A stretch of DNA of 64,000 bases from Candidatus Competibacter sp. (GTDB lineage Bacteria; Pseudomonadota; Gammaproteobacteria; Competibacterales; Competibacteraceae), in NCBI GenBank assembly GCA_029624815.1, contig JARSSH010000045.1, forward strand, positions 1-64,000, written 5' to 3'. The position numbers were made by a program, and so were the translations under genes. Positions within the stretch are counted from its first letter, which is position 1, and every line of letters starts with the position of its first letter. Under the pieces are notes generated by a model that saw nothing but the letters and a program-made list of their open reading frames with translations, was not told the DNA's origin and searched no databases. Positions 1,412-60,214 of the stretch are shown here, in pieces.

Positions 1412-1519
1412 CGGGTTCTCCGTCGGATCGATTGTTGTTCACAACTCCACCTTATCCGAAGCCAACCCGGTGCGGTTACTTCCCGACCTTGTACCCCCTC
1501 AAAACTGTCCGAACTATTG

Positions 1520-10897: not shown

Positions 10898-12463
10898 TCA
10901 ACGAATCAAATCGAAGGCGTAATCGGTTTCGCCCAGGGTCATGGTGTCCTGATCGAGTTTTTCCATCACCGCATTCACCAGGGTCTTGAGCATGTGCATC
11001 GCGCCTTCGTAGCCCAGGGTGGTGTCACGGTGCAGGTGGTGACGGTCGAACAGCGGGAAACCAATCCGAATCAGCGGCACTTCGTGCTCCTTGCCCTTGT
11101 GCAGGGTGTCGCGCTGAATGAACTTGCCGTAGGAATTGCCGATCAGGAAATCGGGTTTGTTGCTGAACACCAGCGAACGCAGATGCCAGAGATCCTTGCC
11201 GACGTAGACCTCGGCTTCCTGACCGTAGGGCGAGTCCTTGAGCAGTTTGGTGATGTCCTTGGTCCAGCGCTTGTTGGCGTTGTGACACAGCACATGCAGG
11301 GGTTCGGCGCCCAGCTCCAACAGGAATTGGCACATGCCGGTCACGAAGTCGGGATCGCCATAGACCGAGAAACGCTTGCCATGCAACCAGGTGTGGGAGT
11401 CGGTCATCATGTCCAGCAGCCGACCGCGTTCCAGAGCCAACGATTCGGGGATCGGCTTGCCGGTGAGTTCCGACACCTTCATCAGGAACTCGTCGGTCCA
11501 GCTCAATCCCATGGGGATGCGAATCGAGCTGACGGGTTGCTTCCAGGTGTCCTCGATATATTTCCTGGTCTTGGGCAACTGCCACGGTTGCAGCAACAGC
11601 GTGTCGATGGCGTTGGGCGCATCCTTGATTTCATCCTGCGTGGTGCCGCCCGCGTACATGCGGAATTCACCGTCGGTCGGGGTGTCGAGAACCTCCTCGG
11701 GATCGGACAGGAAGGTGTAATCGACCTCCATCTCCTTCAGCATCCGCTTGATCACCCGGAGGTTGCCGAGATAGGTTTCGAAACCGGCCACGATGTTGAT
11801 CTTGCCGTTGCCGCCGACCGTCTTGCCCTCCATCGAATTCAGGGTGAAGTAGCGCAGGATGCCTTCCATCATGTTGTCCCAGCCGGTGGTGTGGCTGCCG
11901 ACGAAGCTGGGGGTATGGGCGAACGGCGTGGGGAAATCCATCGGCACCCGCCCGTCCTTCTTGGCGTTGGTGATGAAGGCGTTCAGGTCGTCGCCGATGA
12001 CTTCCGCCATGCAGGTCGTCGACACCGCGATCATTTCCGGCTGATACATGACCTTGGAGTTCTCCAACCCCTCGAACATGTTTTTCTGTCCGCCGAATAC
12101 CGCCGCGTCTTCGGTCATTGAGTCGGAGACGGCGGCGATCGGTTCGCGGAAATGGCGGTTGAAGTAAGTGCGGAAATAAGCGACGCAGCCCTGCGAGCCG
12201 TGGACGTAAGGCAGGGTTTTGTAAAAGCCCAGCGCGCACAACACCGCGCCCAGCGGCTGACAGGCTTTGGCCGGGTTGATGGTCAGCGCCTCGCGCTGGA
12301 AATTCAGTTCCTTGTACGCCTCGGTGGTCGTCCACTGGAACACTTCCTCCAGTTTTTCGCGTGGAGGCGCTTCCTCGAACACCCGCTTGCGGGCAAAGGC
12401 TGCCTGGTATTCATCGGTATTGAACAGCGGGAAGCCCGGTTTGATCGTTTCAACGTCTTGCAT
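10898..12463 (-). CDS. nifK: NifK, beta subunit of MoFe nitrogenase
   Basis: A 521-residue dinitrogenase beta chain. P-cluster ligand cysteines are Cys68 (AKACQP), Cys93 (GSQGCVAYFR) and Cys151 (STTCMAEVIGDD). Other hallmarks are YFRTYFNRHFREPIA, FVGSHTTGWDNM and DRHHLHRDTTLGYEGAMHML. Length matches the group I enzymes, without the N-terminal shortening of some groups. With NifD it forms the alpha2beta2 tetramer that reduces dinitrogen at FeMo-co. Confidence 0.99.
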   Translation of the reverse strand: MQDVETIKPGFPLFNTDEYQAAFARKRVFEEAPPREKLEEVFQWTTTEAYKELNFQREALTINPAKACQPLGAVLCALGFYKTLPYVHGSQGCVAYFRTYFNRHFREPIAAVSDSMTEDAAVFGGQKNMFEGLENSKVMYQPEMIAVSTTCMAEVIGDDLNAFITNAKKDGRVPMDFPTPFAHTPSFVGSHTTGWDNMMEGILRYFTLNSMEGKTVGGNGKINIVAGFETYLGNLRVIKRMLKEMEVDYTFLSDPEEVLDTPTDGEFRMYAGGTTQDEIKDAPNAIDTLLLQPWQLPKTRKYIEDTWKQPVSSIRIPMGLSWTDEFLMKVSELTGKPIPESLALERGRLLDMMTDSHTWLHGKRFSVYGDPDFVTGMCQFLLELGAEPLHVLCHNANKRWTKDITKLLKDSPYGQEAEVYVGKDLWHLRSLVFSNKPDFLIGNSYGKFIQRDTLHKGKEHEVPLIRIGFPLFDRHHLHRDTTLGYEGAMHMLKTLVNAVMEKLDQDTMTLGETDYAFDLIR

Positions 12464-12548: not shown

Positions 12549-14024
12549 TCAGGCGGCCGCCGATTCCAATGCTTCCGTGCCGGCGCGTTTCCAGGGAGCC
12601 TGTAAATTCTTCCAGCAGGGATTGTTGATCGTCATATCCATGTCACGGGCAAAGATGGCGAAACCGTCGTAGCCATGATAGGGGCCGGAGTAATCCCAGG
12701 AGTGCATCTGCCGGAACGGAATGCCCATCTTGTGGAACACGTATTTTTCCTTGATGCCGGAACCGATCAGATCGGGCTTCAGCCGTTCCACGAAGGATTC
12801 CAGCTCGAAGCTGGTGGCGTCGTCGTAGATCAGCGCGCCGTCCTGCACCTCCTTGAAGGTGCGGTCGTAATCGTCGTTGTGAGCGAACTCGTAGCCCGCG
12901 CCGATGATTTCCATCCCCAAATCTTCATAGGCGCCGATGACGTGGCGAGGCCGCAGGCCGCCGACGAACAGCATGACCCGCTTGCCTTCCAGGCGGGGGC
13001 GATACTTGGCGACGATGGCGTCCATGGTGGGCTGATATTTGGCGATCACCCGTTCGGCGTTTTCCTTGATCGTGTCGTCGAAGAACGCGGCGATCTTGCG
13101 CAGGCTTTCGGCGATCTTGGTCGGCCCGAAGAAGTTATATTCCAGATAGGGAATGCCGTACTTTTCCTCCAAGTGCCGACTGATGTAATTCATCGAACGG
13201 TAGCAGTGCAGCAGATTCAGCTTGGCGTGGCGGGTCGATTCCATTTCCGGGATCGAGCCATCGCCGGACCATTGCGCGATGACTCGCAGGCCGATCTCCT
13301 CGATCAGAACCCGCGAACTCCAGGCGTCGCCGCCGATGTTGTAGTCGCCGGTGATCGCCACGTCGTAAGGCGTGGACTCGAAACCGTTGTCTTCGTCGCG
13401 GTTGTGCAGCACCCAGTCGCGCAACGAGTCGTTGGCGACATGGTGGCCGAGGGACTGGGAGACGCCCCGGAACCCTTCGCAGCGCACCGGCACCACCGTC
13501 TTGCCGATTTCCCTGGCCGATTTCTTGGCCACGGCTTCGATGTCGTCGCCGATCAGGCCGATGGGGCATTCCGACTGCACGGTGACGCCCTTGGCCAGCG
13601 GGAACAGGGTGTCGATCTCGCTGATCAACTTGGCCAGCTTCTTGTCGCCGCCGAACACCACGTCCTTTTCCTGGAAATCCGAGGTGAAGTTCATGTCGCC
13701 GAATACGTTGACGCCGCTGTGGCCGGTGATGTAGTTACGGCGGCCCGCGCGGGAAAATTGCCCGCAGCCGACCGGGCCGTGCGAGATGTTGACCACGTCC
13801 TTGACCGGTCCCCACACCACGCCCTTGGCGCCGGCGTAGGCGCAGCCGCGCGCGGTCATCACGCCGGGCAGCGCCTTCTTGTTGGCAACGATGCACTTGT
13901 TGGATTTTTCCAGGGTGGGGTCGTTGGCCATCAGATGCTTGGCGCGTTGCTTGCCGGTGGCTTCCGGGTAAACTTCCAGCACTTCCTGAATCAGTTGTTC
14001 GGTTTCTTGGCGGTTCATGGTCAT
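12549..14024 (-). CDS. nifD: NifD, alpha subunit of MoFe nitrogenase
   Basis: A 491-residue dinitrogenase alpha chain. FeMo-co ligands are Cys274 ([10 protein letters not shown]) and His441 ([18 protein letters not shown]). P-cluster ligands are Cys61, Cys87 and Cys153 ([11 protein letters not shown]). These are one less than the Azotobacter numbering, so the alignment is essentially gap-free up to the active site. [12 protein letters not shown] and [18 protein letters not shown] are further signatures. It starts 23 bases after nifH, with GGAG upstream of the ATG. Confidence 0.99.
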
Positions 14025-14047: not shown

Positions 14048-15040
<993 letters not shown>

Positions 15041-15081: not shown

Positions 15082-15957
15082 ATGACAAACGCGACGGTTT
15101 GTCGGGTTGATGACAATCCGATTGCGGCGCCGGTCGATGGCATCGGGCCGCGTTTGCCCAAGGGCTCCTATCTGCCGATCAACCGCTGCAACCTGCCGGC
15201 GGCGATCCTGGGCGGCCTGACTTTTCAGCGCCATCCGGCCCCGCTGCTGCTCGACGGAGTGGCGGAACTGCACCACCGGTTGTTCCGGTCGCTGGAGCCC
15301 TTGACGGAACCGGCCGAACGGGCGCGGCGGTTCATGGACTACATGACGGTGTACTTTCGGTTGGAAGCGCTGGAGGAAGTGGGCCTGACGCCGGGTCGGC
15401 GCAAGCTGCGCGGGCGGGCGGATTACCTGCGCATGGTGCGCGGCTGGGCCTTCGATCCCAACAGCCAGGAAGGCGCGGTGCTGAAAGCCTGGGTGGAATC
15501 GCGTTTCGGCCTGCTGGCTCGGTTCCACGGGGGATTGCTCGACGACCGCGTCCGGGACGATGCCTACACGCACTTTCTGGAGGCGTGCAGCCGGGGGTTG
15601 TACAACACCAACGCGTTGGAAGCGCAATTGGATCTGCTGTACGCCTATGGCCAATACGAACAGCGACGCCAGCAGTCGGCGGTGACACACCTAAGCCTGT
15701 ATCGCGGCTTCAACCGCTTCAGCGACGACCAGATATTGGCGAAACCCGAACGTCGGCGCTGGATCGTGCTGCTCAACAACCTCAGCTCCTTCAGCGTCCG
15801 CCGCGAGCGGGCCGAAGAGTTCGGCGACCATCTGCTGCGGGCGCAAATCCCGTTGGCCAAGGTGTTCTTCCATAACCGGATGTTGCCGGGGATGCTCAAG
15901 GGTGAGGACGAGTACGTGGTGGTCGGCGGGATTTACGAGGTGGAAAGGCTGTGTTGA
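15082..15957 (+). CDS. draT: DraT, NAD+-dinitrogen-reductase ADP-ribosyltransferase
   Basis: A 291-residue protein divergent from nifH. Segments LPINRCNLPAAILGGLTFQRHP (residues about 30-51), MVRGWAFDPNSQEGAVLKAWVESRFGL, LYNTNALEAQLDLLYAYGQYE and LSLYRGFNRF are those of DraT, which switches nitrogenase off by ADP-ribosylating the NifH Arg when ammonium or darkness signals. The ATG at 15082 is the first that fits the family. A second longer frame start at 14974 would lie in the promoter region. The partner draG, needed to reverse the modification, is not in this window. Confidence 0.9.
   Translation: MTNATVCRVDDNPIAAPVDGIGPRLPKGSYLPINRCNLPAAILGGLTFQRHPAPLLLDGVAELHHRLFRSLEPLTEPAERARRFMDYMTVYFRLEALEEVGLTPGRRKLRGRADYLRMVRGWAFDPNSQEGAVLKAWVESRFGLLARFHGGLLDDRVRDDAYTHFLEACSRGLYNTNALEAQLDLLYAYGQYEQRRQQSAVTHLSLYRGFNRFSDDQILAKPERRRWIVLLNNLSSFSVRRERAEEFGDHLLRAQIPLAKVFFHNRMLPGMLKGEDEYVVVGGIYEVERLC
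15100..15115. promoter_or_regulatory. Candidate NifA upstream activator sequence for nifH (inside draT)
   Basis: TGT-N10-ACA, centred about 125 bases upstream of the expected nifH start site, a typical distance for NifA. It lies in codons 7-12 of draT, so the same bases serve as coding and control DNA. Confidence 0.65.
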
Positions 15958-16077: not shown

Positions 16078-16148
16078 CCTAAGGTTTACACACAAGGTCG
16101 ATTGTTTGCTCGATCTTGTTCGAAAACCCAAAGAGAAGGATCATCGCG

Positions 16149-17303
16149 ATGATAAAGCCCAAAATCCTGCTCGGTCTGTTGACCGCGTTGTCCTTGATGC
16201 TGACCAGCCCTTCCTTTGCGGCCCGCGAGAAGTTCGGCGCCGATCAGCGGCATGAAGAGGTCAAAAAGGAGTTGCGGACCATCAAGCCGTCCAAGGAAGA
16301 ATTCAAATGGAAGATGGTCATGCCCTGGACCGAAGGCATCCTGTTTTACGACATGGCCCAGCACTTCGCCGATACCGTCGCCCTCGCCTCGGGTGGCCGG
16401 CTGGAAATCAAACTCTTTCCGGCCGGCGCGCTGGTCGGCGCCATGGAAAGTTTCGATGCCGTCAGCAAGGGTTCGGCCCAAATCGGCCACGACTGGCCCG
16501 GCTACTGGAAGGGGAAGAACGAAGCTTTCGTGGCGTTCGCCTCGGTGCCTTTCGGCCTGGATACCGAGGGTTATAACATCTGGCTGTACGAGCGCGGCGG
16601 CCTGAAGATGATGCAGGATCTGTACGGGCAATATAACCTGTACGCCCTGCCCGGTGGCAACGGCGGCCAGGAGATGGGCCTGTTTTCCAACAAAAAAGCC
16701 ACCAAGATGGCTGATTTCAAAGGTCTGCGCGTGCGCACTCCCGGTTGGTACATGGATATCATGAATGGCCTGGGCGCCAGCGTGACGCCCCTGCCCGGCG
16801 GCGAGGTTTATCTGGCGCTGGAGCGCGGCGTCATCGACGCGGCCGAGTTCAGCACCCCGGCCATGAATTACCCCATGGGCTTCGACGAAATCACCAAATA
16901 CGTCATCGAACCCGGCGTGCATCAGCCTTCGGTCCAGTGTGCGTTTTTCATCAACAAGGATGCGTGGGACAAGCTGCCGTCCGATCTGAAATGGATCGTC
17001 GATACGGCCGCCAAGGAAACCCAGCTCTGGTCCACCGCCTGGCAGGAGAATCTCAATATCGAGGCGATCGAGCGCTTCAAGGGCAAGGTCGAATTCGTGC
17101 GCATGGACGACGAGACCATCACCAATTTCGCCAAGCGGACCAAGGAATATCTGGATGAACTCAAGGCCAAGTATCCCGACGTGAAAAAGGTGCTCGATTC
17201 CCAGGATAAATTCCGCAAGGACTTCGCCGAATGGCGCGAAATCCGCAGCGGCGTGACGCCGTGGCCGCTGGACGATTACATCGCCGGCAAGCGGACCCAG
17301 TAA
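16149..17303 (+). CDS. dctP: TRAP transporter substrate-binding protein, DctP family
   Basis: A 384-residue periplasmic binding protein. It starts with a signal peptide (MIKPKILLGLLTALSLMLTSPSFAA, cleavage near residue 25). The mature part has the DctP fold landmarks: FKWKMVMPWTEG, FADTVALASGGRLEIKLFPAGALVG, VRTPGWYMDIMNGLGASVTPLPGGEVYLALERGVIDAAEF. The ATG at 16149 is chosen for its AGAAGGA site and because it begins the signal peptide. Proteins with VGAMESFDAVSKGSAQIGHDWPGYW often bind 2-oxo acids or related carboxylates; the ligand cannot be read from sequence. Confidence 0.92.
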   Translation: MIKPKILLGLLTALSLMLTSPSFAAREKFGADQRHEEVKKELRTIKPSKEEFKWKMVMPWTEGILFYDMAQHFADTVALASGGRLEIKLFPAGALVGAMESFDAVSKGSAQIGHDWPGYWKGKNEAFVAFASVPFGLDTEGYNIWLYERGGLKMMQDLYGQYNLYALPGGNGGQEMGLFSNKKATKMADFKGLRVRTPGWYMDIMNGLGASVTPLPGGEVYLALERGVIDAAEFSTPAMNYPMGFDEITKYVIEPGVHQPSVQCAFFINKDAWDKLPSDLKWIVDTAAKETQLWSTAWQENLNIEAIERFKGKVEFVRMDDETITNFAKRTKEYLDELKAKYPDVKKVLDSQDKFRKDFAEWREIRSGVTPWPLDDYIAGKRTQ

Positions 17304-17419
17304 TCGCCTTTCCACTTCAATCCCGTTTGCATTTGCCGAGAGGCGTGGCCGGTCGATACCCGGTCCCGCCGCTCTCTCTTGGCCGGGAATCGCCGGACAC
17401 CGTTATGGAGGGATGGCTC

Positions 17420-17917
17420 ATGCTCAAAATCGCTCGGACAATCGATGCCCTGAATGAGAATGTCGGTTATTACGGCGCTTTTCTGGTTCTTCCCCTGTTG
17501 GGCGTCGTCAGCTATGAGGTGGTCATGCGTTACGGTTTCAACGCCCCCACTTCCTGGGGATTCGAAGCCACCACCTTTCTCTACGGCGTGCATTTCGTGT
17601 TGGGTCTGGGCTACACCCACAAACACAACGGCCACGTCGCCATCGATGTCTTCGAAGCCAAACTGGAGCATCGTCCCCGCACCCTGCTCCGGATCGTGGT
17701 CAACCTGATCGTTTTTATGCCGACCATGGGCCTGATGGCTATCTGGTCGGTGATCTATGCGAGTACGGCCTGGATGCAATGGGAAGTCGCCTCCACGTCC
17801 TGGGCGCCGCCGCTCTACCCCTTCAAGACGCTGATGGCCCTCGGTTTCGTGCTGCTGTTTCTGCAGGGCGTCGCCAAGCTGATCCAGGATTTCCACAGCC
17901 TGCAATCTTCCGACTAG
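17420..17917 (+). CDS. dctQ: TRAP transporter small permease, DctQ family
   Basis: A 165-residue membrane protein with four predicted membrane segments (around residues 17-37, 49-70, 91-113, 135-155) and the DctQ signature EVVMRYGFNAPTSWGFEATTFLYG. It is the small subunit that pairs with DctM. The ATG at 17420 has GGAGGG six bases upstream; an ATG five codons earlier lacks a site. Confidence 0.92.
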   Translation: MLKIARTIDALNENVGYYGAFLVLPLLGVVSYEVVMRYGFNAPTSWGFEATTFLYGVHFVLGLGYTHKHNGHVAIDVFEAKLEHRPRTLLRIVVNLIVFMPTMGLMAIWSVIYASTAWMQWEVASTSWAPPLYPFKTLMALGFVLLFLQGVAKLIQDFHSLQSSD

Positions 17918-17944
17918 GTCGGCTTCCCTCGGAGAAAAACGCCC

Positions 17945-19285
17945 ATGAGTTCCGAACTGCTGACCCTCCTGATGTTCGCCACCCTGATCGTCTGCATTCC
18001 CCTGGGGCATCCGCTGGCGATCACCCTGGCCGCCGTCGCCACCCTGTTCGGGCTGATCGATAACGGCTTCAACGTGCCGGCCCTGCTCGATCTGTTCGTC
18101 AACAACAACTGGGGCACCTTCCTGAATTACACCCTGGTGGCCATTCCCCTGTTCATTTTCATGGCGCAGATTCTGGATCGCTCCAAGGTGTCCGAGGGGC
18201 TGTTCGACGCGCTTTATCTGTCGTTGGGCAAGGTGCGCGGCGGTCTGGGTTTGGCGGTGATCGTGGTCAGCACGGTGTTCGCCGCCACCACCGGCATCAT
18301 CGGCGCCTCGGTGGTGGCCATGGGTCTGATGGCCGGGCCGGCGCTGTTGCGGCGCGGCTACGACCGGGGCCTGTCGGCCGGCATCATCTGCTCGTCCGGC
18401 ACGCTCGGCATTCTCATTCCGCCGAGCATCATGCTGGTGGTGTACGGTGGCTTGACCGGTTTGAAGGAAACCTCGGTCGGCAACCTGTTCGCCGGGGCGA
18501 TTCTGCCGGGGCTGGTGTTGTCCGGGTTGTATATCGGCTATGTCGCCATCCGCTGTGGCATCAACCCCCGTCTGGGTCCGCCCGTGCCCACCGAGGAGGA
18601 CGTCCACACCGCCGGGCAGAAAGCCGGCATGATCCTCAAGAGTTTCCTGCCGCCATTCGGTTTGATCCTGCTGGTGATGGGCACCATCCTGGCCGGGGTC
18701 GCCACGCCCACCGAAGCCGCCGCGCTGGGCGGGGTCGGGGCGCTGGTGCTGGCGGCCCTCAACCGGAAGCTGACTTGGGAGGTCGTCGTCCAGTCTTCGC
18801 TGTCCACGCTGCGCACCACCGCCATGATCATGCTGCTGTTCGTTGGCGGCAAACTGTTCAGCGTGGTGTTTCTCAGCATGGGCGGCGGCGACGTGGTCGC
18901 CGATCTGCTGCTGGGCATGGACGTCAGCCCTTACGTGGTGCTGGCGATCATGATGAGCGTGGTGTTTTTCCTGGGGATGTTCATCGACTGGGCGGCGATT
19001 CTGCTGGTCACCGTGCCGATCTTTACCCCGATCGCGCTGGATCTCGACTTCAACCCGCTGTGGTTCGCCATGCTGGTCTGCGTCAACCTGCAAACCTCGT
19101 TTCTGACGCCGCCGTTCGGTTACGCGCTGTTTTATTTCAAGGGAGTCGCGCCGGTCGAATACACCATGGGCGATATTTACAAGGGCATCGTGCCTTTTGT
19201 CATGATCCAGCTTCTGGGATTGATCCTGATGATTGTTTTTCCCGGCTTGATCACCTGGTTGCCGGAGTTGTTTTTCGGCGGCTAA
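17945..19285 (+). CDS. dctM: TRAP transporter large permease, DctM family
   Basis: A 446-residue membrane protein with about twelve hydrophobic segments. Family motifs are IPLFIFMAQILDRSKVSEGLFDA, GLGLAVIVVSTVFAATTGIIGASVVAMG and GTLGILIPPSIMLVVYG. It uses a Na+ or H+ gradient to import the DctP-bound ligand. It follows dctQ by 27 bases and has a GGAG ribosome site. The gene is convergent with a universal stress protein gene. Confidence 0.95.
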   Translation: MSSELLTLLMFATLIVCIPLGHPLAITLAAVATLFGLIDNGFNVPALLDLFVNNNWGTFLNYTLVAIPLFIFMAQILDRSKVSEGLFDALYLSLGKVRGGLGLAVIVVSTVFAATTGIIGASVVAMGLMAGPALLRRGYDRGLSAGIICSSGTLGILIPPSIMLVVYGGLTGLKETSVGNLFAGAILPGLVLSGLYIGYVAIRCGINPRLGPPVPTEEDVHTAGQKAGMILKSFLPPFGLILLVMGTILAGVATPTEAAALGGVGALVLAALNRKLTWEVVVQSSLSTLRTTAMIMLLFVGGKLFSVVFLSMGGGDVVADLLLGMDVSPYVVLAIMMSVVFFLGMFIDWAAILLVTVPIFTPIALDLDFNPLWFAMLVCVNLQTSFLTPPFGYALFYFKGVAPVEYTMGDIYKGIVPFVMIQLLGLILMIVFPGLITWLPELFFGG

Positions 19286-19307
19286 ACCGCGGCGCGAGCC
19301 GCAACGA

Positions 19308-19340
19308 CGGGGTGCGTTCGAAATGCCGGCGCGCACCCCG
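19308..19340. terminator. Bidirectional hairpin between dctM and the usp gene
   Basis: CGGGGTGCG and CGCACCCCG form a 9-bp stem around a 15-base loop in the 61-base gap between convergent genes. There is no T-run, so Rho-independent termination is uncertain. Confidence 0.45.
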
Positions 19341-19346
19341 CCGCGA

Positions 19347-19841
19347 TCATTCGCGTTCGATGGGAACCAGAAAAACCGGAATTTTTGGGCCGCGGGCTTT
19401 CATGAGGACTTTGTGAGCCACCGACCCCATGAACATTTCACCCAGGGCGGTTTGACCGTGCGAGCCCAGCACGATCAAATCCGCGCCGACCCGCTTGGCT
19501 TCGTCCAGGATGACTTGCGCCGGGTGCCCTTCCGCGACGCGCATCTCGGCCACCACGGTATCCGCCTCGGGATGCAGGTGTTCCGCGCAGAATTTCTCCA
19601 GTCGCCGACGCATTTCCCGGTTAACCTGCTCGAAACCTTCTTGATGCAGGGTTTTCAGGGTGTCGGGCGGCACCATGGTTTCGACCAGGGATTGCGCATA
19701 GTCGCTCATCGGTTCCAGCGCATGGATCACATGAACCTTGGCGCCATATCGTTTGGCGAGCGAGAAGGCGTGATTGAAAACCTCCGCACCGTGAGGCCCC
19801 AGGTCGGTGGCATAGAGAATCGTGCGAATCGTGTAATCCAT
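19347..19841 (-). CDS. Universal stress protein, UspA family
   Basis: A 164-residue single-domain Usp with the nucleotide-binding pattern IRTILYATDLGPHGAEVFNHA at the N terminus and LIVLGSHGQTALGEMFMGSVAHKVL near the C terminus (G-x2-G-x9-G-S/T), which predicts ATP binding. It is convergent with the DctPQM operon. Usp proteins next to TRAP genes are known modulators of uptake (for example TeaD with TeaABC), which suggests a similar role here. Confidence 0.88.
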   Translation of the reverse strand: MDYTIRTILYATDLGPHGAEVFNHAFSLAKRYGAKVHVIHALEPMSDYAQSLVETMVPPDTLKTLHQEGFEQVNREMRRRLEKFCAEHLHPEADTVVAEMRVAEGHPAQVILDEAKRVGADLIVLGSHGQTALGEMFMGSVAHKVLMKARGPKIPVFLVPIERE

Positions 19842-20075: not shown

Positions 20076-20678
20076 TTACTCCTCGGGGCCAAAGCAATGG
20101 GAATAGTCGCCACAGACCGCGCAGGAGGGCGCGCGGCAGAGATAAACGCCTTCCTGAATGCACAGTTGCTTGTAGAGAAATTTTTTCCACTTCATGTCGT
20201 GGTCGTTTTTCGCCGCCAGCGTCGGGAAGTTGCGTTGCATTAATGCGCTTAAATCCCGCCGCGACCACAAACCCAGATCCTCCCAGAGATGATCGTTGCT
20301 CATGCAGCCGGTGGCGACGATCACGCTCAGCCAGTGTTCGGATTGATCCCGCCCCGCCCGATATCGTTGCAGCAAGTGGATCAGCTCGCCCAATTCTTCC
20401 ACCAAGCGGGAATCCCACCGCGGCGTTGGACGCGGTGGGGCGACCGGTCGGGAAGCGCCGGGGAAATGCCGTGCCAGCAATGCCTCGAAGTCGGTGAATT
20501 CCAACCCCAGGTTAGCGGGCAACGCTCCGCCGCCCATAACTTGCGTGGCTAGCATCCGCGCCAGGGTATCGTCGTTGGGCAAGCCGCGCCGATGGCTCAT
20601 CAGGATGCCATACGGCTCCCGCCGGGGATCGGTGTCGACGGGAGCGGTAAGCGCTTCCGGCCGCAACGCCAATTCCAT
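20076..20678 (-). CDS. nifQ: NifQ, molybdenum donor for FeMo-cofactor
   Basis: A 200-residue NifQ, which carries a Mo-Fe-S cluster and delivers molybdenum to NifEN/NifH. The C-terminal motif C-x4-C-x2-C-x5-C is intact (CRAPSCAVCGDYSHCFG, residues about 181-197). N-terminal landmarks are HRRGLPNDDTLARMLATQVMGGGALPANLGL and SVIVATGCMSNDHLWEDLGLWSRRDLS. It is the last gene of the nifB group and lies 12 bases after the FeSII-like gene. Confidence 0.95.
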   Translation of the reverse strand: MELALRPEALTAPVDTDPRREPYGILMSHRRGLPNDDTLARMLATQVMGGGALPANLGLEFTDFEALLARHFPGASRPVAPPRPTPRWDSRLVEELGELIHLLQRYRAGRDQSEHWLSVIVATGCMSNDHLWEDLGLWSRRDLSALMQRNFPTLAAKNDHDMKWKKFLYKQLCIQEGVYLCRAPSCAVCGDYSHCFGPEE

Positions 20679-20690
20679 GAGCAGTGACCG

Positions 20691-21038
20691 TTAATATTCG
20701 ACCAGGATTTCTTCGTCCCGCACGATCATCTGACACGCCAGCCGCCACGGCGGCGGAATGTCGTCCACCAGGATGCGGCTGATATCCTCGTCGCTCAGTT
20801 TGCCCAATTCTTTCAGCAGGTTCCTTTCCTTCTCGGTGGGTGGGCCACTCATCCGGGGTTTTTTATCGATACTCGACACTTTCACCAGGCAAGTGCCGCA
20901 TTCGCCATCCTGACAATCGAAGGCAATCGGAATCTGATTGTCCTTGGCGATTTTCAAGATTGTTTCGGTATGGCTGCCGGCCGCGGCATAAACCGTCTTG
21001 ATGTCATGCTTGGAGTTTGAAAAAGTAATCAATGGCAT
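20691..21038 (-). CDS. Shethna FeSII-like 2Fe-2S ferredoxin (nitrogenase protection)
   Basis: A 115-residue plant-type 2Fe-2S ferredoxin with ligands Cys42, Cys47, Cys50 and Cys102 (DCQDGECGTCLVK ... RLACQ). The residues around the cluster, an insert with TEKERNLLKELGKL, and the end DDIPPPWRLACQMIVRDEEILVEY closely follow the Azotobacter FeSII protein as I remember it. FeSII binds nitrogenase under oxygen and holds it in a protected, inactive complex. The nif operon position supports this assignment. A generic 2Fe-2S electron carrier is the alternative. Confidence 0.8.
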   Translation of the reverse strand: MPLITFSNSKHDIKTVYAAAGSHTETILKIAKDNQIPIAFDCQDGECGTCLVKVSSIDKKPRMSGPPTEKERNLLKELGKLSDEDISRILVDDIPPPWRLACQMIVRDEEILVEY

Positions 21039-21065: not shown

Positions 21066-21368
<303 letters not shown>

Positions 21369-21402: not shown

Positions 21403-22830
21403 TCACGCGCTTGCGGGTTGGGCCACGCGCGCGGGCGTGGATAGCCGTCCGTTCGTCCGCCATTCCCGATGGATGGCCCGGAGCGCGTCTTCAATTCGTT
21501 CTCCGCCGTGTTCGCTGTTGGGTTGGATACCCGCATCTTCCAGTGCCCGCCATGGCGTAAAACCGACCCGTGCGCACAGCAGCGCCGCGCAATCGCGCAG
21601 GGCATGGATCGCCCCCGCCAGGGCGGCTTCCGAATCGCCGCAAGTGGTCGCGCCATGGCAATAACGGGCGATATCGCGGCGCTCGATCAGATGGCTTTCA
21701 AGCGCGGAAACGTCGTAAACCAGCAGTTCCCGCAAGTGGCCAAAGTGGGCATCGAGTGTCCGACCGTCCAGGCTGCCTACCGCGATGCGCAACGATCCTT
21801 CGGTGCTCTGGGGACGTATCGCTATGATCGTTGGCGGCCGAACCGCCGGAGTCGAAGGCCGGGGTGCTTGTTCCAGCCGACGGACGATGGCCGCCCGTAC
21901 CTCCGCCCGCTTAACCATGGCCGCTTGCGGATCCACCGTCATGGCCTCGACCTTGGCCAGGCTGAATTCGCCGCTTCGATCCGTGCCCAACAAACCGGTG
22001 GCATCGGCGCGGCACTGCTGACAGTGGCTCATCATGCCTTCGTCGCTTTCGCAGGCGGAGCGGGTCGCCGCCAGTTCCTCGGCGGTCGGTTCGCGCTGGC
22101 CGGTGAGCCCGAAATGGGTGCCATGTTCCGGGCGGGCGATCAACGGCATGATGTTGTGCAGGATTGCGCCTTTTTCCCGCACGATGCGATTGACTTCCGG
22201 TAGGTGGGTGTCGTTGATGCCTGGAATCAGCACCGAGTTGATCTTGACCTGCACGCCGCGCGCCACCAGCCGATCCAGGCCGCGCAGTTGTTGCTCGATC
22301 AGCAGGGCCGCGGCCTCGCGCCCGCGCAGCCGGCGGCCCCGCCAGACGATCCACGGATAGATCCGGGCGCCGATGTCGGGGTCGACGCAATTGATCGTAA
22401 TGGTCACATGGTGGATGCCATGCTCCGCCAGGGTGTCGGCGTGTTCCGGCAGCGCCAGTCCGTTGGTGGACAGACACAACAAGAGGTCGGGCGCTTGTTC
22501 CCGCAGTTCCCGCAAGGTAGCGAACACCGGTTCGGGATTGGCCAGCGGATCGCCGGGTCCGGCGACGCCGACTACCGCTAGATGGGGGATGGCCGCGCCC
22601 ACCGCCAGCGCTTTTCGAACCGCCTGTTCCGGTTCCAGCAGTTCCGCCACCACGCCAGGGCGCGATTCATTGCTGCAATGATACTTGCGGTTGCAGTAGT
22701 TGCACTGGATGTTGCATTTCGGCGCAACCGCCAGATGCAGACGGGCGAAATGCCGGTGCGCCGATGGGGAGTAGCAGGGATGAAGCGCCGACGGATTGCC
22801 CGCGGCGGTCGGTCGGCTGTTCGGTTCCAT
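21403..22830 (-). CDS. nifB: NifB, radical-SAM NifB-co synthase with C-terminal NifX-like domain
   Basis: A 475-residue enzyme that fuses two 4Fe-4S clusters and inserts the carbide to make NifB-co, the FeMo-co core. The radical-SAM motif is Cys39-x3-Cys43-x2-Cys46 (CNIQCNYC), preceded by HPCYSPSAHRHFARLHL and followed by NRKYHCSNESRPGV. The C-terminal NifX-like domain starts LRIAVGSLDGRTLDAHFGHL. The ATG at 22830 is chosen because AGGGGA lies just upstream and because the longer frame start at 22920 coincides with the sigma-54 promoter. Confidence 0.97.
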   Translation of the reverse strand: MEPNSRPTAAGNPSALHPCYSPSAHRHFARLHLAVAPKCNIQCNYCNRKYHCSNESRPGVVAELLEPEQAVRKALAVGAAIPHLAVVGVAGPGDPLANPEPVFATLRELREQAPDLLLCLSTNGLALPEHADTLAEHGIHHVTITINCVDPDIGARIYPWIVWRGRRLRGREAAALLIEQQLRGLDRLVARGVQVKINSVLIPGINDTHLPEVNRIVREKGAILHNIMPLIARPEHGTHFGLTGQREPTAEELAATRSACESDEGMMSHCQQCRADATGLLGTDRSGEFSLAKVEAMTVDPQAAMVKRAEVRAAIVRRLEQAPRPSTPAVRPPTIIAIRPQSTEGSLRIAVGSLDGRTLDAHFGHLRELLVYDVSALESHLIERRDIARYCHGATTCGDSEAALAGAIHALRDCAALLCARVGFTPWRALEDAGIQPNSEHGGERIEDALRAIHREWRTNGRLSTPARVAQPASA

Positions 22831-22911
22831 GCATGTTCCCCTGGCGCGGCGAAATCGTCGAAAACGGGTGTCAACCCGCCGCCGTCCGGAAGCGGGCGGC
22901 GCGAGTTTTCT

Positions 22912-22927
22912 AGCAAGCACCGTGCCC
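22912..22927 (-). promoter_or_regulatory. Candidate sigma-54 promoter of nifB
   Basis: The minus strand reads GGGCACG-N4-TTGCT, matching the -24/-12 consensus at all but the first base. It lies about 80 bases before the chosen nifB start. Confidence 0.8.
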
Positions 22928-22989: not shown

Positions 22990-23005
22990 TGTGGCGTTTG
23001 CCACA
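22990..23005. promoter_or_regulatory. NifA upstream activator sequence of nifB, extended dyad
   Basis: TGTGGC-N4-GCCACA contains TGT-N10-ACA and is a longer perfect dyad than the minimal NifA site. It is about 65 bases upstream of the -24 element of nifB. Because the site is symmetrical it could also act on the plus-strand TAXI transporter. Confidence 0.75.
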
Positions 23006-23445
23006 GGAGGAAGAGAGCGATTGTTGGTTATGGAACAAGAACGACACCGGGAGTCGGTTCGGACTGGTGTCCACACCCAACTCTTGCCTATGGCGCGGTA
23101 CGGTTGAATGGAAGCCGTATGGCTAGACGAGTGTGGTTGAGTCAGTTAAGTTAATAACTCGCGGAATAAAGCCAGTCGGCATATCCATGTAATTTTGTGG
23201 GTTCTTAAGCTTGCCAAGTAGTTGTTTTTTTCCAAAAAACAACAAAGAATTATAGCAATAAATTATAGCAATAAATTAGACAAATAAGATCTCTTCTACT
23301 ATATCCTTCTCCTATGGTTTGAAAAGTTGGTGGTTTACCAGCTATTTAATTTCATGTATTTTCGAATAAGCAGTTTAATCGGTCGCACTACCCCGTGTGG
23401 CCAAACCGGGCGATAGATTCGCTTTTACCACCAAAAAGAGAGGGC
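23006..23445. other. AT-rich intergenic region between nifB and the TAXI transporter
   Basis: About 440 bases with no credible gene. It holds a 10-bp perfect hairpin with a T/A-rich stem (GTTGTTTTTT, loop TCC, AAAAAACAAC at 23221-23243) and two tandem 13-base units ATTATAGCAATAA at 23249-23274 followed by a partial third. A 67-codon open frame at 22951-23154 runs through the NifA-type site and has no family resemblance; it is taken as chance. The plus-strand promoter of the TAXI operon is probably in this stretch, but I cannot mark it. Confidence 0.6.
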
Positions 23446-23448
23446 ATG

Positions 23449-24417
23449 ATGAAAAGATTCGCAACGGCTGCTTTATCCGCAACTTTGTTGCTGGGCTTGA
23501 GTGGCGCGAATGCCGCCGAGGAAAAATACGTCACCATTGGTACTGGCGGTCAGACCGGCGTCTACTACGTCGTTGGCCAATCCATCTGCAAGCTGGTCAA
23601 CCGTGAACAGGACAAACACGGCATCAAATGTACGGCGCCATCCACCGGCGGTTCGGTCGCTAATCTCAACGCGATTCGGGCCGGAGAACAAGACATGGGC
23701 GTGGCCCAGTCCGACCAGCAATACAAGGCGCTGAAAGGCGAGGGCGATTTCGAGGCGGCCGGCCCCTTCAAGGAATTGCGCGCGGTATTCGCGGTGCATC
23801 CTGAATCCTTCACCGTGGTGGCGCGCAAGGATTCCGGCATCAAGACCTTTGACGATCTCAAGGGCAAACGGGTCAACATCGGCAATCCCGGTTCCGGCCA
23901 GCGCGCCACCATGGATGCGTTGATGAAGGAAAAGGGTTGGGATACCGGCGTGTTTCAACTGGCCTCCGAACTGAAGGCGGCGGAACAGGCCCAGGCTCTG
24001 TGCGACAACAAGATCGACGCCATGGTCTATGTGGTCGGCCATCCGAACGGCTCCATCCAGGAAGCCGCTTCCTCCTGCGAGGCGATTGTCGTGCCCGTCA
24101 CTGGCCCGGAAGTGGACAAGCTGGTAAAGACCTATCCTTACTATGCCGTTTCCACCATCCCCGGCGGCATGTATCCGGGCACCGATAAAGACGTCAAGAC
24201 CTTCGGCGTGACCGCAACCTTCGTTTCCTCCACCAAGACGCCCGACGACACGATCTACGTGGTCGTCAAGGCCGTCTTCGATAATTTCGACCGCTTTAAG
24301 AAGCTGCATCCGGCCTTCGCCAATCTGGAGCCGGCCAACATGCTTAAGGATGGCTTGTCCGCGCCCCTGCACGACGGCGCCGTCAAGTACTACAAAGAGA
24401 AAGGCTGGCTGAAGTAG
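23449..24417 (+). CDS. TAXI-family TRAP transporter solute-binding protein, copy 1
   Basis: A 322-residue periplasmic protein. The signal peptide MKRFATAALSATLLLGLSGANA is followed by EEKYVTIGTGGQTGVYYVVGQSICKLV, the glycine-rich start of TAXI (TRAP-associated extracytoplasmic immunogenic) proteins. Other landmarks are GSVANLNAIRAGEQDMGVAQSDQQY and DDLKGKRVNIGNPGSGQRATMDALM. TAXI systems import glutamate, 2-oxoglutarate or similar compounds in the few studied cases. Two adjacent ATG codons are possible; the second, five bases after GAGAGG, is preferred. Confidence 0.93.
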   Translation: MKRFATAALSATLLLGLSGANAAEEKYVTIGTGGQTGVYYVVGQSICKLVNREQDKHGIKCTAPSTGGSVANLNAIRAGEQDMGVAQSDQQYKALKGEGDFEAAGPFKELRAVFAVHPESFTVVARKDSGIKTFDDLKGKRVNIGNPGSGQRATMDALMKEKGWDTGVFQLASELKAAEQAQALCDNKIDAMVYVVGHPNGSIQEAASSCEAIVVPVTGPEVDKLVKTYPYYAVSTIPGGMYPGTDKDVKTFGVTATFVSSTKTPDDTIYVVVKAVFDNFDRFKKLHPAFANLEPANMLKDGLSAPLHDGAVKYYKEKGWLK

Positions 24418-24519
24418 TCATCGTGGCCGGCGAGCGGGTGACCGGGAGGGTTGCCCGTTCGATCGATTTCCCTCGCAGTTAGGTATTTGGTTCGTGTTTT
24501 GATGTGGCCGGGGTGTCCT

Positions 24520-25494
24520 ATGAAAGCGAATCGCTTAACCAGCATTTTCGTCGCCTCGATGGTCCTGATTCTGGGAGCGGGCGCCGCGCGGCCGGTTGGG
24601 GCCGAGGAAATCGCCATCGGAACCGCCAGTCGCGCCGGTGTGTATTTTCAGGTCGGGCAGGCTATCTGCCGGTTGCTGAGCGCCGCCCCCGCCGGGCGTG
24701 ATCTGGCCTGCAAGGCGTTGCCAACGGATGGCTCCATCTTCAACCTGCAACAAATTCGATCTGGCAAGTCGCAACTCGGCGTCGTGCAGTCCGATTGGCA
24801 GTATCGCGCCACCAACGGCACGGGGGTATTCGAATCGGCGGGACCGGACACCGATCTGCGGGCCTTGTTTTCCGTGCATGGCGAACCCTTCACCGTGGTG
24901 GCTCGCCGCGACGCCGGCATCAAGACCTTTGACGATCTCAAGGGCAAACGGGTCAACATCGGGAACCTCGGTTCCGGTCAGCGCGCCACCATGGAAGTGC
25001 TCATGGACGCCAAAGGGTGGGACAAGAGCGTTTTTTCCCTGACCAACGATCTATCGGCCTCCGAACAGTCCCTGGCGCTTTGCCATGACCGCGTCCAGGC
25101 CATGGTCTACGTCGTGGGGCATCCGAACGCGTCCGTGGCCCAGAGCGTCAACCTGTGCGATGCCGTCATCGTGCCGGTGGAGGGGCCGGCGGTCGACCGG
25201 TTGCTGACCGACAACCCTTATTACGCCCGTACCCAGGTGCCTGGCGGAGTCTATAAGGGCAACTCGAAATCGGTCGGCACATTCGGCGTCAAGGCCACGG
25301 TCGTGGCTTCCACCCAGCTGAGCCCCGACACCGTCTATCTTTTGGTCAAGACGGTGTTCGAAAATCTGGATGACTTCAAAAAGCAGCACCCGGCATTCGC
25401 CGACCTGGAAGCGGCGGGCATGATCAAGGACGGACTTTCGGCGCCGCTGCACGAAGGAGCGCTGCGTTACTATCGGGAAAAGGGCTGGTTGTGA
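24520..25494 (+). CDS. TAXI-family TRAP transporter solute-binding protein, copy 2
   Basis: A 324-residue paralog of the preceding protein, with signal peptide MKANRLTSIFVASMVLILGAGAARPVGAEE. It keeps IAIGTASRAGVYFQVGQAICRLL and DDLKGKRVNIGNLGSGQRATMEVLM. A 49-base tract at 24914-24962 is identical to 23834-23882 of copy 1, although the rest has diverged considerably; this suggests gene conversion. The two copies may have different ligands and share one permease. Confidence 0.92.
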   Translation: MKANRLTSIFVASMVLILGAGAARPVGAEEIAIGTASRAGVYFQVGQAICRLLSAAPAGRDLACKALPTDGSIFNLQQIRSGKSQLGVVQSDWQYRATNGTGVFESAGPDTDLRALFSVHGEPFTVVARRDAGIKTFDDLKGKRVNIGNLGSGQRATMEVLMDAKGWDKSVFSLTNDLSASEQSLALCHDRVQAMVYVVGHPNASVAQSVNLCDAVIVPVEGPAVDRLLTDNPYYARTQVPGGVYKGNSKSVGTFGVKATVVASTQLSPDTVYLLVKTVFENLDDFKKQHPAFADLEAAGMIKDGLSAPLHEGALRYYREKGWL

Positions 25495-25608
25495 GCCCCT
25501 GCCTGGCGAGTTCCTGATTGTCTTTGCCAAGACGCTGTTGCGTATTGGTTTCCAAGCTGTTGACCCATGACCAACCCATGCCGGCAGTGCTGGGTATAGG
25601 AGACCCTG

Positions 25609-28652: not shown

Positions 28653-28949
28653 AATGGGTTAGGCATAATTTCTTCACGGACACCGTCTTTCCTCAAGCAA
28701 AGAGTGGGTGGCGAGAAGGATAGTCACAAAGACTGACTCCCCGCCGTCACTCTGGCTTCCCGCTACGTTGTTTTATTGCTTTATCCAGGATATCACCATT
28801 CTTTTCCTCCTGAAGTCGGTGCCGCTTGTGGATTGCTCGCGCTTGAGTATCCGATTGGGAAAACAAGCCCGACTTCGATGGATAACGGTTGTGAAGACAG
28901 TGGTTTATCGAATCGCTTGATAACGAGAATCCCACCAAAGGAAACCATC

Positions 28950-31835: not shown

Positions 31836-31925
31836 GCTGTCTTGAAAAGATATGGCAGGCTAGTCGATTGGCTTTTGACAGAACTGCGTAAAATTTGGAA
31901 TAAACCAGCGTTGGAGATAACAGGC

Positions 31926-33383: not shown

Positions 33384-33476
33384 CACCGTGGCGGGTTGTG
33401 GTCGTCATCGCATCGTTCGACGCGATGACGAACCCGGCAACAGGGATCGAGTTTCGCAGTATTGAGGAATCCGCCC

Positions 33477-34475
33477 ATGGAGCGCGTTTTTGAAGCTATT
33501 GAGGAGGATCAGCCAGGCCCCAAATGGCAGGATCTTTTCCTGAAACACTGGCCAGCCTACCGGCGCTGGTTTTTGAGCGAGGGCAATAAGGCGCGACCCT
33601 TGTATCTCAGCTCGATTCGTCGCTTGAAAACGCATATGCCGGAATTGATGGCCACCTACGAGCGTCTCGTGGAACTGGGCGGTGGCGGCGATTTGGCCGC
33701 CCGTTTCCTGTCGTTGTATTGTCCGCCCCCTTATTTGAGCGGTTGCTCCCAGGCGGTTTGGTCCGGAGCAATCCCCTTGCTGGTTCGCAACTACGATTAC
33801 AGCCCGCAATTGTTCGAGGCGGTGATTCTGAAAACGGCTTGGAACCGCCGTCGGGTCATCGCCGTGAGCGATTGCCTGTGGGGGGTGCTGGATGGCTTGA
33901 ACGAGGATGGCTTGGCCGTTTCCCTGACCTTCGGAGGACGGCGGGTCGTGGGCGAGGGGTTTGGCGTGCCACTGCTGTTGCGCTATATCCTGGAATTTTG
34001 CACCACTACGCAGGAGGCGGTGGAGGTGCTGAAGCGGGTGCCGACCCACATGGCCTACAACATCACCGTGTTGGATCGCGGCGGAACCTTCATGACGGTT
34101 TTCATCGCTCCCGACCGGTCGGCGATCGTCAAGCCCGTCCCTGTCACCACCAATCACCAGCAGGAGGTAGAGTGGCATCAGCACGCCCAAGCCACGGCGA
34201 CCCTGGAACGGGAGCGCTTTCTACGTTTTCGGCTGCGGGAGAGCATCGAGAGTCCCGACAAGTTGGTGCAGGCTTTTCTGCGCTCGCCGGTGTACTCGAC
34301 CGCCTATGCGCGCGGTTTCGGCACGCTGTATACGGCGGTATACCGGCCGCTGAGCGGAGAAGCCGAGTATCTTTGGCCCAACGGCGCCTGGAAACAGTCC
34401 TTTCACGCCTTTGAAGAGGGCGGGCGCGTCGTGCGTTTTCCCCATGCCCTCGAACCGACCGAAATGCTGCATTGA
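33477..34475 (+). CDS. C45-like Ntn-hydrolase (acyl-CoA:6-APA acyltransferase/carcinine-hydrolase type)
   Basis: A 332-residue protein of the C45 N-terminal-nucleophile family. The likely self-processing site is before Cys90 in YLSGCSQAVWSG, with the downstream RNYDYSP stretch typical of C45 proteins. VSDCLWGVLDGLNEDGLAVSLTFGG matches the second conserved block, and NITVLDRGGTFMTVFIAPD the third. Members cut or transfer amide-linked acyl groups: isopenicillin N, carcinine, acylated amines. Together with the ATP-grasp enzyme this suggests making and breaking of one amide bond. ATG at 33477 follows GAGGA; an upstream TTG is also possible. Confidence 0.78.
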   Translation: MERVFEAIEEDQPGPKWQDLFLKHWPAYRRWFLSEGNKARPLYLSSIRRLKTHMPELMATYERLVELGGGGDLAARFLSLYCPPPYLSGCSQAVWSGAIPLLVRNYDYSPQLFEAVILKTAWNRRRVIAVSDCLWGVLDGLNEDGLAVSLTFGGRRVVGEGFGVPLLLRYILEFCTTTQEAVEVLKRVPTHMAYNITVLDRGGTFMTVFIAPDRSAIVKPVPVTTNHQQEVEWHQHAQATATLERERFLRFRLRESIESPDKLVQAFLRSPVYSTAYARGFGTLYTAVYRPLSGEAEYLWPNGAWKQSFHAFEEGGRVVRFPHALEPTEMLH

Positions 34476-34533
34476 GCCACGATGTGAGAATTTTCTCCCG
34501 GCGTCAGCGGAGGAAAACGGGAGAAAGCGATTT

Positions 34534-57059: not shown

Positions 57060-58618
<1,559 letters not shown>

Positions 58619-58622
<4 letters not shown>

Positions 58623-60214
58623 GAATCGTCCTCGTATTTGATGGGCAGCAAGACGCGCCAGCGGCAGCCCGCGTCGTAGTCGGGATCAAGCGTGATCATG
58701 CCGCGCTGCTCGTTGACCACTTCCTGGACCATGGCCAAGCCCAGGCCAACATGGGTGGCGGCGCGTTTGGTGGTGAAGAACGGCTCGAAAATCCGCCACT
58801 GCAAGTCCGCGGCCACGCCGGGACCGGTGTCCTCGATCGCCACCGATACCGCCTGCTCCTGAGTGGCGGTGGTGATGCGCAGTTCGCGCGGTTGGTGACG
58901 ATTGCTGTCCATGGCGTCCAGGGCGTTGTCGATCAACTGCTTGAACATGCCGCGCAAGCGGCTGGCCCGCGCGGTGACGGCGGGCAGCATCGGCGCGGGC
59001 TTCCAGTCAACGACGGTGCCGCCGGCCAACAGACGCTGCTTGCACAGCTCCAGCACCTCGCGCAGCAACTGATTGATGTTGACCGGCGCCGCCGCTTCCG
59101 GGGGCACCGCCGGCACCAGCGCCCGCAGCCGTTCCAGCGCCGTTTGACCGGTCGCGGCGGCCTGATTCAGGGCGTGGCGCAAAGCGGGATCAGCCTGGGC
59201 GCCGCGCCGTTCCAACAGGTCGCGGGCGGCGGAGATCAGGTTCATCGGTCCCTGCATCTGGAAGATGGCGGCTTGCAGCGCCTCGCGCATGCTGCGCACC
59301 CGTTCCTGCTCGGCCAGCAGAGCGCGCATGGCGTTCATGCCCACGGCTTCCTGCTGGCGCTTGAGCGCGGTGATTTCGTTGGCCATGAGCAGCAGATAGG
59401 TCTGCCGCACCGGCTTGAAGAAGGTGGCGGCGCTGCTGTCCTGTTCGCGGAACCACACGCCCGAGCAGGAAAACCAGCGCGGTTGCCCCTTGCCGCCCGG
59501 GTCGAAACTGACCTCCCGATCGCGAAAGCCGTGCTCGGCGTTCGCGCCCCACGGAAAGGTTTCGCCCAAGGTTTCCCGCAGGGCGCGCAGGAATTCGGCC
59601 GCCGGTTCCCGCACCCGCAGGTCGCCGACCAGCTTCTTGTATTCGTGGTTGTCGAGGATGACCCGGCCGTTTTCATCGAGCAGGGCGATGACCGCCGGGG
59701 CGGCATCCACCATCGATTCGATCAGCGCCTTTTGATAGTGCACCTGTTGTTCCAAATGGTGCATGGCGGTCACGTCGCGATGAATGCCGAGAAAGCAGGC
59801 GGTTTCCGTCCGAAGATCCTGGATCGGAATGACGGTCAGTTCCGCCAGATAGACGGTGGAGCGCTTGCGGCGGTTGACCAGCAGCCCGGTCCAGGGTTTG
59901 CCGCGCTTGATCTGCCGCCACAATTGGTCGTAGACCCGGGCCGGCGTGCAGCGATCGGAGAGCATGGCGGTGTTCTGGCCGACGACCTCGCTGGCGGCAT
60001 AGCCGGTGACTTCGGTGAAAGCCGGGTTGACGTAGAGGATGTTGGCGTCGATGTCGGTGAGGCAGACCGCGATGGTCAGATGGTCCACCACCTTGGCGAA
60101 CACCCAGGGCGGCAGGGCTTCGGCGGTGGATTGCACTGCCTTCGGGTCGCCTTGGGCGGCGGAGAGATAGCCGAATGTTCTCTGATCGTTCTGGGCCATG
60201 GGGGTACTCGGCAT
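58619..60214 (-). CDS. nifL: NifL, redox and nitrogen-sensing anti-activator of NifA
   Basis: A 531-residue protein. PAS1 (about 37-155, CLTDIDANILYVNPAFTEVTGY) binds FAD in NifL proteins; a second PAS (about 165-290) precedes the transmitter-like region (about 305-390) and a HATPase domain (about 420-530, LIDNALDAMDSN, IEDTGPGVAADLQWRIFEPFFTTK). The usual phosphoacceptor His is missing: AAIFQMQGPMNLISAA stands in place of an H-box. NifL works by binding NifA, not by phosphotransfer, so this is expected. The first ATG lacks a good ribosome site; 60199 is an alternative. Confidence 0.93.

What the first reader, a model, noticed from the sequence alone, without database searches (positions are those of the whole stretch)
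20691..21038. FeSII-type nitrogenase protection protein together with DraT in one nif region
The 2Fe-2S protein resembles Shethna FeSII, which shields nitrogenase from oxygen, while draT beside nifH predicts reversible ADP-ribosylation. Azotobacter uses the first and phototrophs and Azospirillum the second; both in one nif locus suggest an organism facing oxygen bursts and nitrogen shifts.
Basis: partly seen in the sequence, partly recalled or inferred. Interest (0 to 1): 0.62.

Follow-up and report, generated by a model that had tools for sequence, protein, structure and literature searches.

The report
Nitrogenase oxygen shield plus off-switch
A sludge bacterium carries, in one nitrogen-fixation gene region, a protein that shields nitrogenase from oxygen and an enzyme that switches nitrogenase off; the pairing has been reported before, but the usual enzyme that switches nitrogenase back on was not found.

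Summary
Window 20691-21038 (-) encodes an FeSII (Shethna II) orthologue: PDB search E 7e-27 to Azotobacter FeSII against 1e-3 for the next ferredoxin, 49% identity, N-loop insert present; the 14 best fold matches are all FeSII. It is gene 3 of a nifB-fdxC-FeSII-nifQ operon behind a conserved NifA/sigma-54 promoter. DraT, divergent from nifHDK, keeps its presumed R-S-ExE residues. The host is Candidatus Competibacteraceae (activated-sludge GAO). The pairing itself is not new: Acidithiobacillus ferrooxidans (2008) and Rhodobacter capsulatus have both, as do 22 of 39 family genomes and 17 of 29 FeSII-bearing genomes outside the family. What is unusual is the missing partner: canonical DraG reached its cut-off in 0 of 22 DraT-bearing genomes of the main Competibacteraceae clade, against 17 of 17 outside the family. 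draT is nevertheless under purifying selection. In 15 of 22 a different hydrolase type (HydrA, Tri1/Thermus-like), acquired more than once, could do DraG's job; one genome has no hydrolase of the family at all. Of three residues implicated in nitrogenase binding only Lys14 is kept (Lys15 to Thr, His55 to Ser), as in the relatives sampled. No experiment shows function.

The parts
20691..21038 (-). FeSII (Shethna protein II) orthologue, 115 aa
   Evidence: PDB phmmer E 7e-27; fold matches 1-14 all FeSII; conserved in 27 of 39 family genomes
21066..21353 (-). 2Fe-2S ferredoxin of the FdxC/FdIV type (nitrogenase-related ferredoxin of R. capsulatus)
   Evidence: PDB 9i2a 'Ferredoxin-4' E 3.9e-38, next 1.2e-7
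20076..20678 (-). nifQ
   Evidence: PF04891 E 7.4e-57
21403..22833 (-). nifB, first gene of the operon
   Evidence: TIGR01290 576 bits, over cut-off
22912..22927 (-). sigma-54 -24/-12 element of the nifB-fdx-FeSII-nifQ operon
   Evidence: GGCA-N6-TTGC present downstream of the activator sites in 15 of 15 relatives read; the motif alone is not above chance in the window
22990..23037 (-). two NifA upstream activator sites TGT-N10-ACA, 32 bp apart
   Evidence: pair at 32 bp in 12 of 15 relatives, at least one site in 15 of 15
15082..15957 (+). draT, 291 aa
   Evidence: PF07357 E 2.5e-94; R208, S236, E275, E277 (numbering; R210, S238, E277, E279) kept in 44 of 44 rows
14048..14941 (-). nifH, with the DraT target Arg101 (GCAGRG)
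   Evidence: TIGR01287 over cut-off; residue check
12549..14024 (-). nifD
   Evidence: TIGR01282 over cut-off
10898..12463 (-). nifK
   Evidence: TIGR01286 over cut-off
14993..15008 (-). candidate sigma-54 element of nifHDK
   Evidence: one mismatch to TGGCAC-N5-TTGCW; conservation not tested
57060..58622 (-). nifA, the activator expected to drive the operon
   Evidence: TIGR01817 683 bits, over cut-off
58619..60214 (-). nifL
   Evidence: TIGR02938 620 bits, over cut-off

Best explanation
The gene is a true FeSII. It is made together with nitrogenase assembly proteins under NifA/sigma-54 control and, when oxygen rises, is expected to lock the Fe protein and MoFe protein in an inactive, oxygen-tolerant complex that falls apart again when oxygen is gone. 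DraT acts on a different signal: under ammonium or energy stress it ADP-ribosylates NifH Arg101 and stops nitrogenase. In this family the canonical eraser DraG is gone; reversal, where it happens, is most likely done by a Tri1/Thermus-type ADP-ribosylarginine hydrolase (HydrA, here on another contig, G000:C35). Shown here: gene identities, operon order, promoter, conserved residues, absence of a DraG equivalog, presence of HydrA with its active-site residues. Inferred: the protective complex, DraT activity, HydrA acting on NifH. A consequence (inferred): ADP-ribosylated NifH cannot dock, so it should fall outside FeSII protection; the two protections would exclude each other on one molecule.
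For: FeSII: E 7e-27 against 1e-3 for other ferredoxins; the model's 14 best PDB matches are FeSII, the first being FeSII as bound in the nitrogenase filament 9cu1 (moderate model, pLDDT 70.9). Order nifB-fdx-FeSII-nifQ in 16 of 21 relatives' FeSII loci read. Promoter conserved in 15 of 15 relatives; nifLA in the window. DraT residues in 44 of 44 rows; draT dN/dS about 0.08-0.25 in the 10 pairs tried. DraG absent: TIGR02662 over cut-off in 0 of 22 DraT-bearing main-clade genomes versus 17 of 17 outside the family. HydrA in 15 of 22 DraT-bearing versus 1 of 15 DraT-lacking genomes, with the DraG-type aspartate in 15 of 15 rows, and in G029 between draT and nifQ.
Against: Lys15 and His55 of A. 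vinelandii FeSII, implicated in nitrogenase interaction or its redox control, are Thr and Ser here. Other ferredoxins of nif operons are electron carriers, not protectors. HydrA is not a DraG by the curated cut-off, is not one clade and also occurs in genomes with DraG, is not beside nif genes in 14 of the 15 cases read, has no NifA site in the 367 upstream bases checked in the host, and among nif-bearing genomes the association is not significant (15/22 versus 1/6, p 0.057). Seven DraT-bearing genomes lack HydrA.
Confidence: 0.62

Rival explanations
1. The FeSII-like protein is mainly an electron carrier or assembly ferredoxin for the nitrogenase system and not an oxygen protector.
For: It lies in the nifB-nifQ assembly operon beside an FdxC-type ferredoxin; two of three mutagenesis-implicated residues differ.
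Against: Sequence and fold are closest to FeSII by a wide margin, insert included; R. capsulatus FdD (fdxD), an FeSII-like ferredoxin, does not donate electrons to Mo-nitrogenase in vitro according to a table seen and is linked to oxygen protection.
Confidence: 0.2
2. DraT works one way in this family: it retires Fe protein for good, and activity returns only by new synthesis, so no DraG is needed.
For: Canonical DraG in 0 of 22; G001, 98% complete, has draT but no ADP_ribosyl_GH family protein at all; G017 and G030 (100% complete) and G026 (99%) have draT but only the HydrB type, which lacks the DraG aspartate; draT between G017 and G030 is under purifying selection.
Against: 15 of 22 carry HydrA; all 17 DraT-bearing comparison genomes outside the family keep DraG; MAG gaps can hide genes in single genomes.
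Confidence: 0.2
3. DraT is a decaying leftover with no role.
For: Its usual partner is missing.
Against: No in-frame stops in any of the 24 draT matches, presumed catalytic residues kept, dN well below dS, position beside nifH kept.
Confidence: 0.06

Closest known systems
Azotobacter vinelandii FeSII (Shethna protein II, PDB 5ffi, 9cu1)
   Same: Fold, four cluster cysteines, N-loop with lid helix, Lys14, conserved TxKE and RLACQ segments
   Different: 49% identity; Lys15 to Thr, His55 to Ser; here inside the nifB operon
Acidithiobacillus ferrooxidans nif region (PMC2607301)
   Same: FeSII homologue near nifK plus dra genes divergent from nifHDK in one locus
   Different: Has draG with draT and no nifL; here FeSII is in the nifB operon, nifL is present and canonical draG was not found
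Rhodobacter capsulatus FdxD with DraTG (PMC6925177, PMC8777916, PMC10936413)
   Same: NifA-driven FeSII-like ferredoxin plus DraT in one organism
   Different: fdxD adjoins nifH there; DraG present
DraT/DraG switch of Rhodospirillum rubrum and Azospirillum brasilense
   Same: DraT family, NifH Arg101 target context
   Different: No DraG equivalog found in this genome
Tri1 / Thermus thermophilus ADP-ribosylglycohydrolase (PDB 6dre, 2cwc)
   Same: HydrA's closest solved relatives, 244 and 257 bits, versus 128 for R. rubrum DraG
   Different: HydrA's match begins at residue 71 of Tri1, so it lacks that N-terminal part; it keeps the aspartate that Thermus lacks

Membership tests
FeSII (Shethna protein II) | Closer to FeSII than to other 2Fe-2S ferredoxins | tested here: met
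   E 7e-27 versus 1e-3; fold matches 1-14
FeSII (Shethna protein II) | Four cluster cysteines and N-loop insert (59-96) with lid helix | tested here: met
   Cysteines in 86 of 86 rows; model helix 69-77; N-loop limits from PMC11301756
FeSII (Shethna protein II) | Lys14, Lys15, His55 implicated in nitrogenase interaction | tested here: inconclusive
   Lys14 position K in 83 of 86 rows; Lys15 position Thr in 85 of 86; His55 position Ser in 81 of 86; only the Azotobacter row has K and H
FeSII (Shethna protein II) | Forms an oxygen-tolerant complex with NifH and NifDK | not testable with these tools
   needs purified proteins
DraT (dinitrogenase reductase ADP-ribosyltransferase) | PF07357 match and R-S-ExE type residues | tested here: met
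   E 2.5e-94; 44 of 44 rows. That these residues are the R-S-ExE signature of arginine-specific ARTs is recalled, not from a call
DraT (dinitrogenase reductase ADP-ribosyltransferase) | Target Arg101 in NifH | tested here: met
   GCAGRG, Arg at 102 counting Met
DraT/DraG reversible switch | DraG (TIGR02662 equivalog) in the genome | tested here: not met
   best 172 bits versus cut-off 337
DraG | HydrA reaches the DraG cut-off or nests in the DraG clade | tested here: not met
   the 11 DraG rows form one clade (98/99) without HydrA
Tri1 immunity hydrolase | NF041672 cut-off and N-terminal extension | tested here: not met
   309 versus 490 bits, match starts at profile position 67

The most novel reading that the evidence does not exclude
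Competibacteraceae run a rewired nitrogenase off-switch: DraT without DraG, with the eraser's job taken over, more than once, by ADP-ribosylarginine hydrolases of another clade (HydrA), and in some members with no eraser at all, so that DraT retires Fe protein for good while FeSII alone gives the reversible protection during aeration cycles.
Probability: 0.35. Interest if true: 0.62.

Novelty: new variant of a known kind. Interest (0 to 1): 0.42.

Why it matters
According to PMC11301756, FeSII protection has been shown only in two Azotobacter species; a large gammaproteobacterial FeSII set with one of the two lysines and the histidine replaced lets one test which contacts really matter. The DraG-less DraT is a natural test of whether ADP-ribosylation of nitrogenase must be reversible, and of whether another hydrolase class can erase it. 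Both concern organisms that meet oxygen in cycles in wastewater plants.

Tried and rejected
Ordinary ferredoxin: rejected by the E-value gap and fold ranking. draG elsewhere in the genome: looked for with PF03747 and TIGR02662; two family members found, neither a DraG. The second one (HydrB, G000:C54) was set aside: it lacks the DraG aspartate. HydrA as a single ancestral replacement: not supported, it falls into groups mixed with sequences from genomes outside the family. HydrA in the nif regulon of the host: no NifA or sigma-54 site in 367 upstream bases; it follows nadA. DraT structure model: useless (pLDDT 40, 10 sequences), not searched. Plasmids: one distant hit each for FeSII and DraT. 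The first sigma-54 scan of relatives found none because my pattern demanded T or G at the first base; corrected. In one search the DraG reference was cut in the wrong frame, so its 'DraG' labels are unreliable; remade. The cryo-EM papers of the FeSII-nitrogenase complex did not appear in my search and the 2014 fdxD paper is not held, so interface residues from the complex were not tested.

Full report
What is there. The ORF at 20691-21038 (-) encodes 115 aa. Pfam sees a Fer2 domain and no NCBIfam model reaches its cut-off. Against PDB sequences it matches Azotobacter FeSII at E 7e-27 and every other ferredoxin at 0.001 or worse. Identity to A. vinelandii FeSII is 49% over the 103 residues shown. 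A model from 39 sequences (pLDDT 70.9, pTM 0.59) has the lid helix at 69-77, and its first 14 PDB matches are FeSII chains, led by FeSII as seen in the nitrogenase filament 9cu1.

Contact residues. PMC3045800 (passages) cites mutagenesis implicating Lys14, Lys15 and His55. In an alignment of 86 rows (window, A. vinelandii, the 80 loci kept of 381 found, and 4 divergent family members; the 80 are the nearest to the query, so conservation is biased upward) the Lys14 position is K in 83, the Lys15 position T in 85, the His55 position S in 81; only the Azotobacter row has K and H there. The four cysteines, T68, K70, E71, L75, K80, D93 and RLACQ are in 86 of 86. In window numbering the three are K14, T15 and S56; the match of numbers assumes that the mutagenesis paper counts without the first Met.

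Operon and control. Genes run nifB, FdxC-type ferredoxin (PDB 9i2a, E 3.9e-38), FeSII, nifQ with gaps of 49, 27 and 12 bases. The same order is present in 16 of the 21 relatives' FeSII loci that I read. Upstream lie two TGT-N10-ACA sites 32 bp apart and a GGCA-N6-TTGC element; the pair recurs in 12 of 15 relatives, at least one site in 15 of 15, and the element in 15 of 15. Alone, each motif is not clearly more frequent in the window than chance. nifL and nifA lie at 57-60 kb.

DraT. PF07357 E 2.5e-94; it is divergent from nifH. R, S and ExE residues are in 44 of 44 rows (some genomes occur twice). NifH keeps GCAGRG. In 10 pairs draT dN is 0.04-0.23 with dS 0.33-1.34.

Organism. The best FeSII relatives are Candidatus Competibacteraceae; G002, placed in the host's genus, shares the contig length 105395 with a contig of Ca. 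Competibacter phosphatis. These are glycogen accumulators of alternating anaerobic/aerobic sludge (PMC9041414, passages).

How common the pairing is. In 39 family genomes: FeSII 27, DraT 24, both 22, FeSII only 5, DraT only 2, neither 10. Of 29 genomes outside the family (29 of about 58 such loci kept; all FeSII-bearing by construction) 17 have DraT (a thirtieth, G065, is the same genome as G015 and is left out). In print: A. ferrooxidans with an FeSII homologue and draGT in one nif region (PMC2607301, passages); R. capsulatus FdxD and DraTG (PMC6925177, PMC8777916, PMC10936413, passages). PMC11301756 (two of three parts of the text) notes that protection is shown only in two Azotobacter species. 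So the pairing as such is already described.

The missing partner. The host has two ADP_ribosyl_GH proteins; neither reaches the DraG cut-off (172 and 89 bits of 337). In the family DraG reaches its cut-off in 2 of 39 genomes, both of genus g6, beside a draT that is only 41-43% identical to the window's. In the other 22 DraT-bearing genomes it is 0 of 22. Outside the family it is 17 of 17; there draG adjoins draT in 8 genomes (the Methylobacter/Methylovulum type) and is on another contig or far away in 9 (the purple sulfur type). The family's DraT groups with the purple sulfur DraT, so a nif-draT block could have come without its distant draG (inference).

Candidate eraser. HydrA (G000:C35) is closest to Thermus ARH (257 bits) and Tri1 (244), then R. 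rubrum DraG (128). It has the metal-site motifs and the aspartate called DraG-specific in PMC7050489 (passages); 15 of 15 HydrA rows have it, 0 of 5 HydrB rows. HydrA is present in 15 of 22 DraT-bearing genomes (one, G004, only as two contig-end fragments) and in 1 of 15 without DraT (Fisher p 2e-4, relatedness ignored). Restricted to nif-bearing genomes it is 15/22 versus 1/6, p 0.057. HydrA is not one clade and similar proteins occur in some genomes that have DraG. In G029 it lies between draT and nifQ, in a gap that is an insertion hotspot. Seven DraT-bearing genomes lack it; G001 (98% complete) has no member of the hydrolase family at all, nor has G010 (75%).

Verdict. FeSII and DraT are real and probably work; the pairing is known; the DraG-less state of DraT across this family is the part worth a specialist's time. 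My literature searches for it listed no paper whose title or shown abstract says so, and the passages I read do not; PMC12903952 (passages) and PMC4465626 (passages) describe the opposite, draG without draT. Most subscription papers are outside that library.

Noticed in passing
window 16116-19841: A TRAP transporter (DctP, small subunit, DctM) plus a UspA gene sits between draT and nifQ; the cassette is also in G002, G005 and G033, while in G025, G026, G027, G030 and G038 draT and nifQ almost touch: an insertion hotspot between convergent genes.
   Followed up: partly
window 36445-42780: 2111-aa protein with dockerin, teneurin-like TTR, NHL and RHS/YD-shell domains.
   Followed up: no
window 23395-28212: Two tandem TAXI-type binding proteins and a large TRAP-like membrane protein just upstream of nifB (only the first was scanned, the rest by eye).
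   Followed up: no
window 28776-35865: Orn/Lys/Arg decarboxylase, an ATP-grasp-like ORF (by eye) and a second PLP decarboxylase close together.
   Followed up: no
G056, contig C1 (the genome of L066, Thiocapsa sp. KS1): draT matches come in three separate pieces, the outer ones about 10 kb apart, so the gene looks broken although DraG is over its cut-off.
   Followed up: no
G063, contig C69 (the genome of L081): DraG-like match with four in-frame stops and no draT in that genome: a decaying draG.
   Followed up: no
L024: A record titled Synechococcaceae cyanobacterium carries Competibacteraceae nif genes and gives the same draT place as G015: probably a mislabelled MAG.
   Followed up: partly
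window 1432-3027: OLD-like AAA ATPase/TOPRIM protein next to a transposase, at the edge of the nif region.
   Followed up: no
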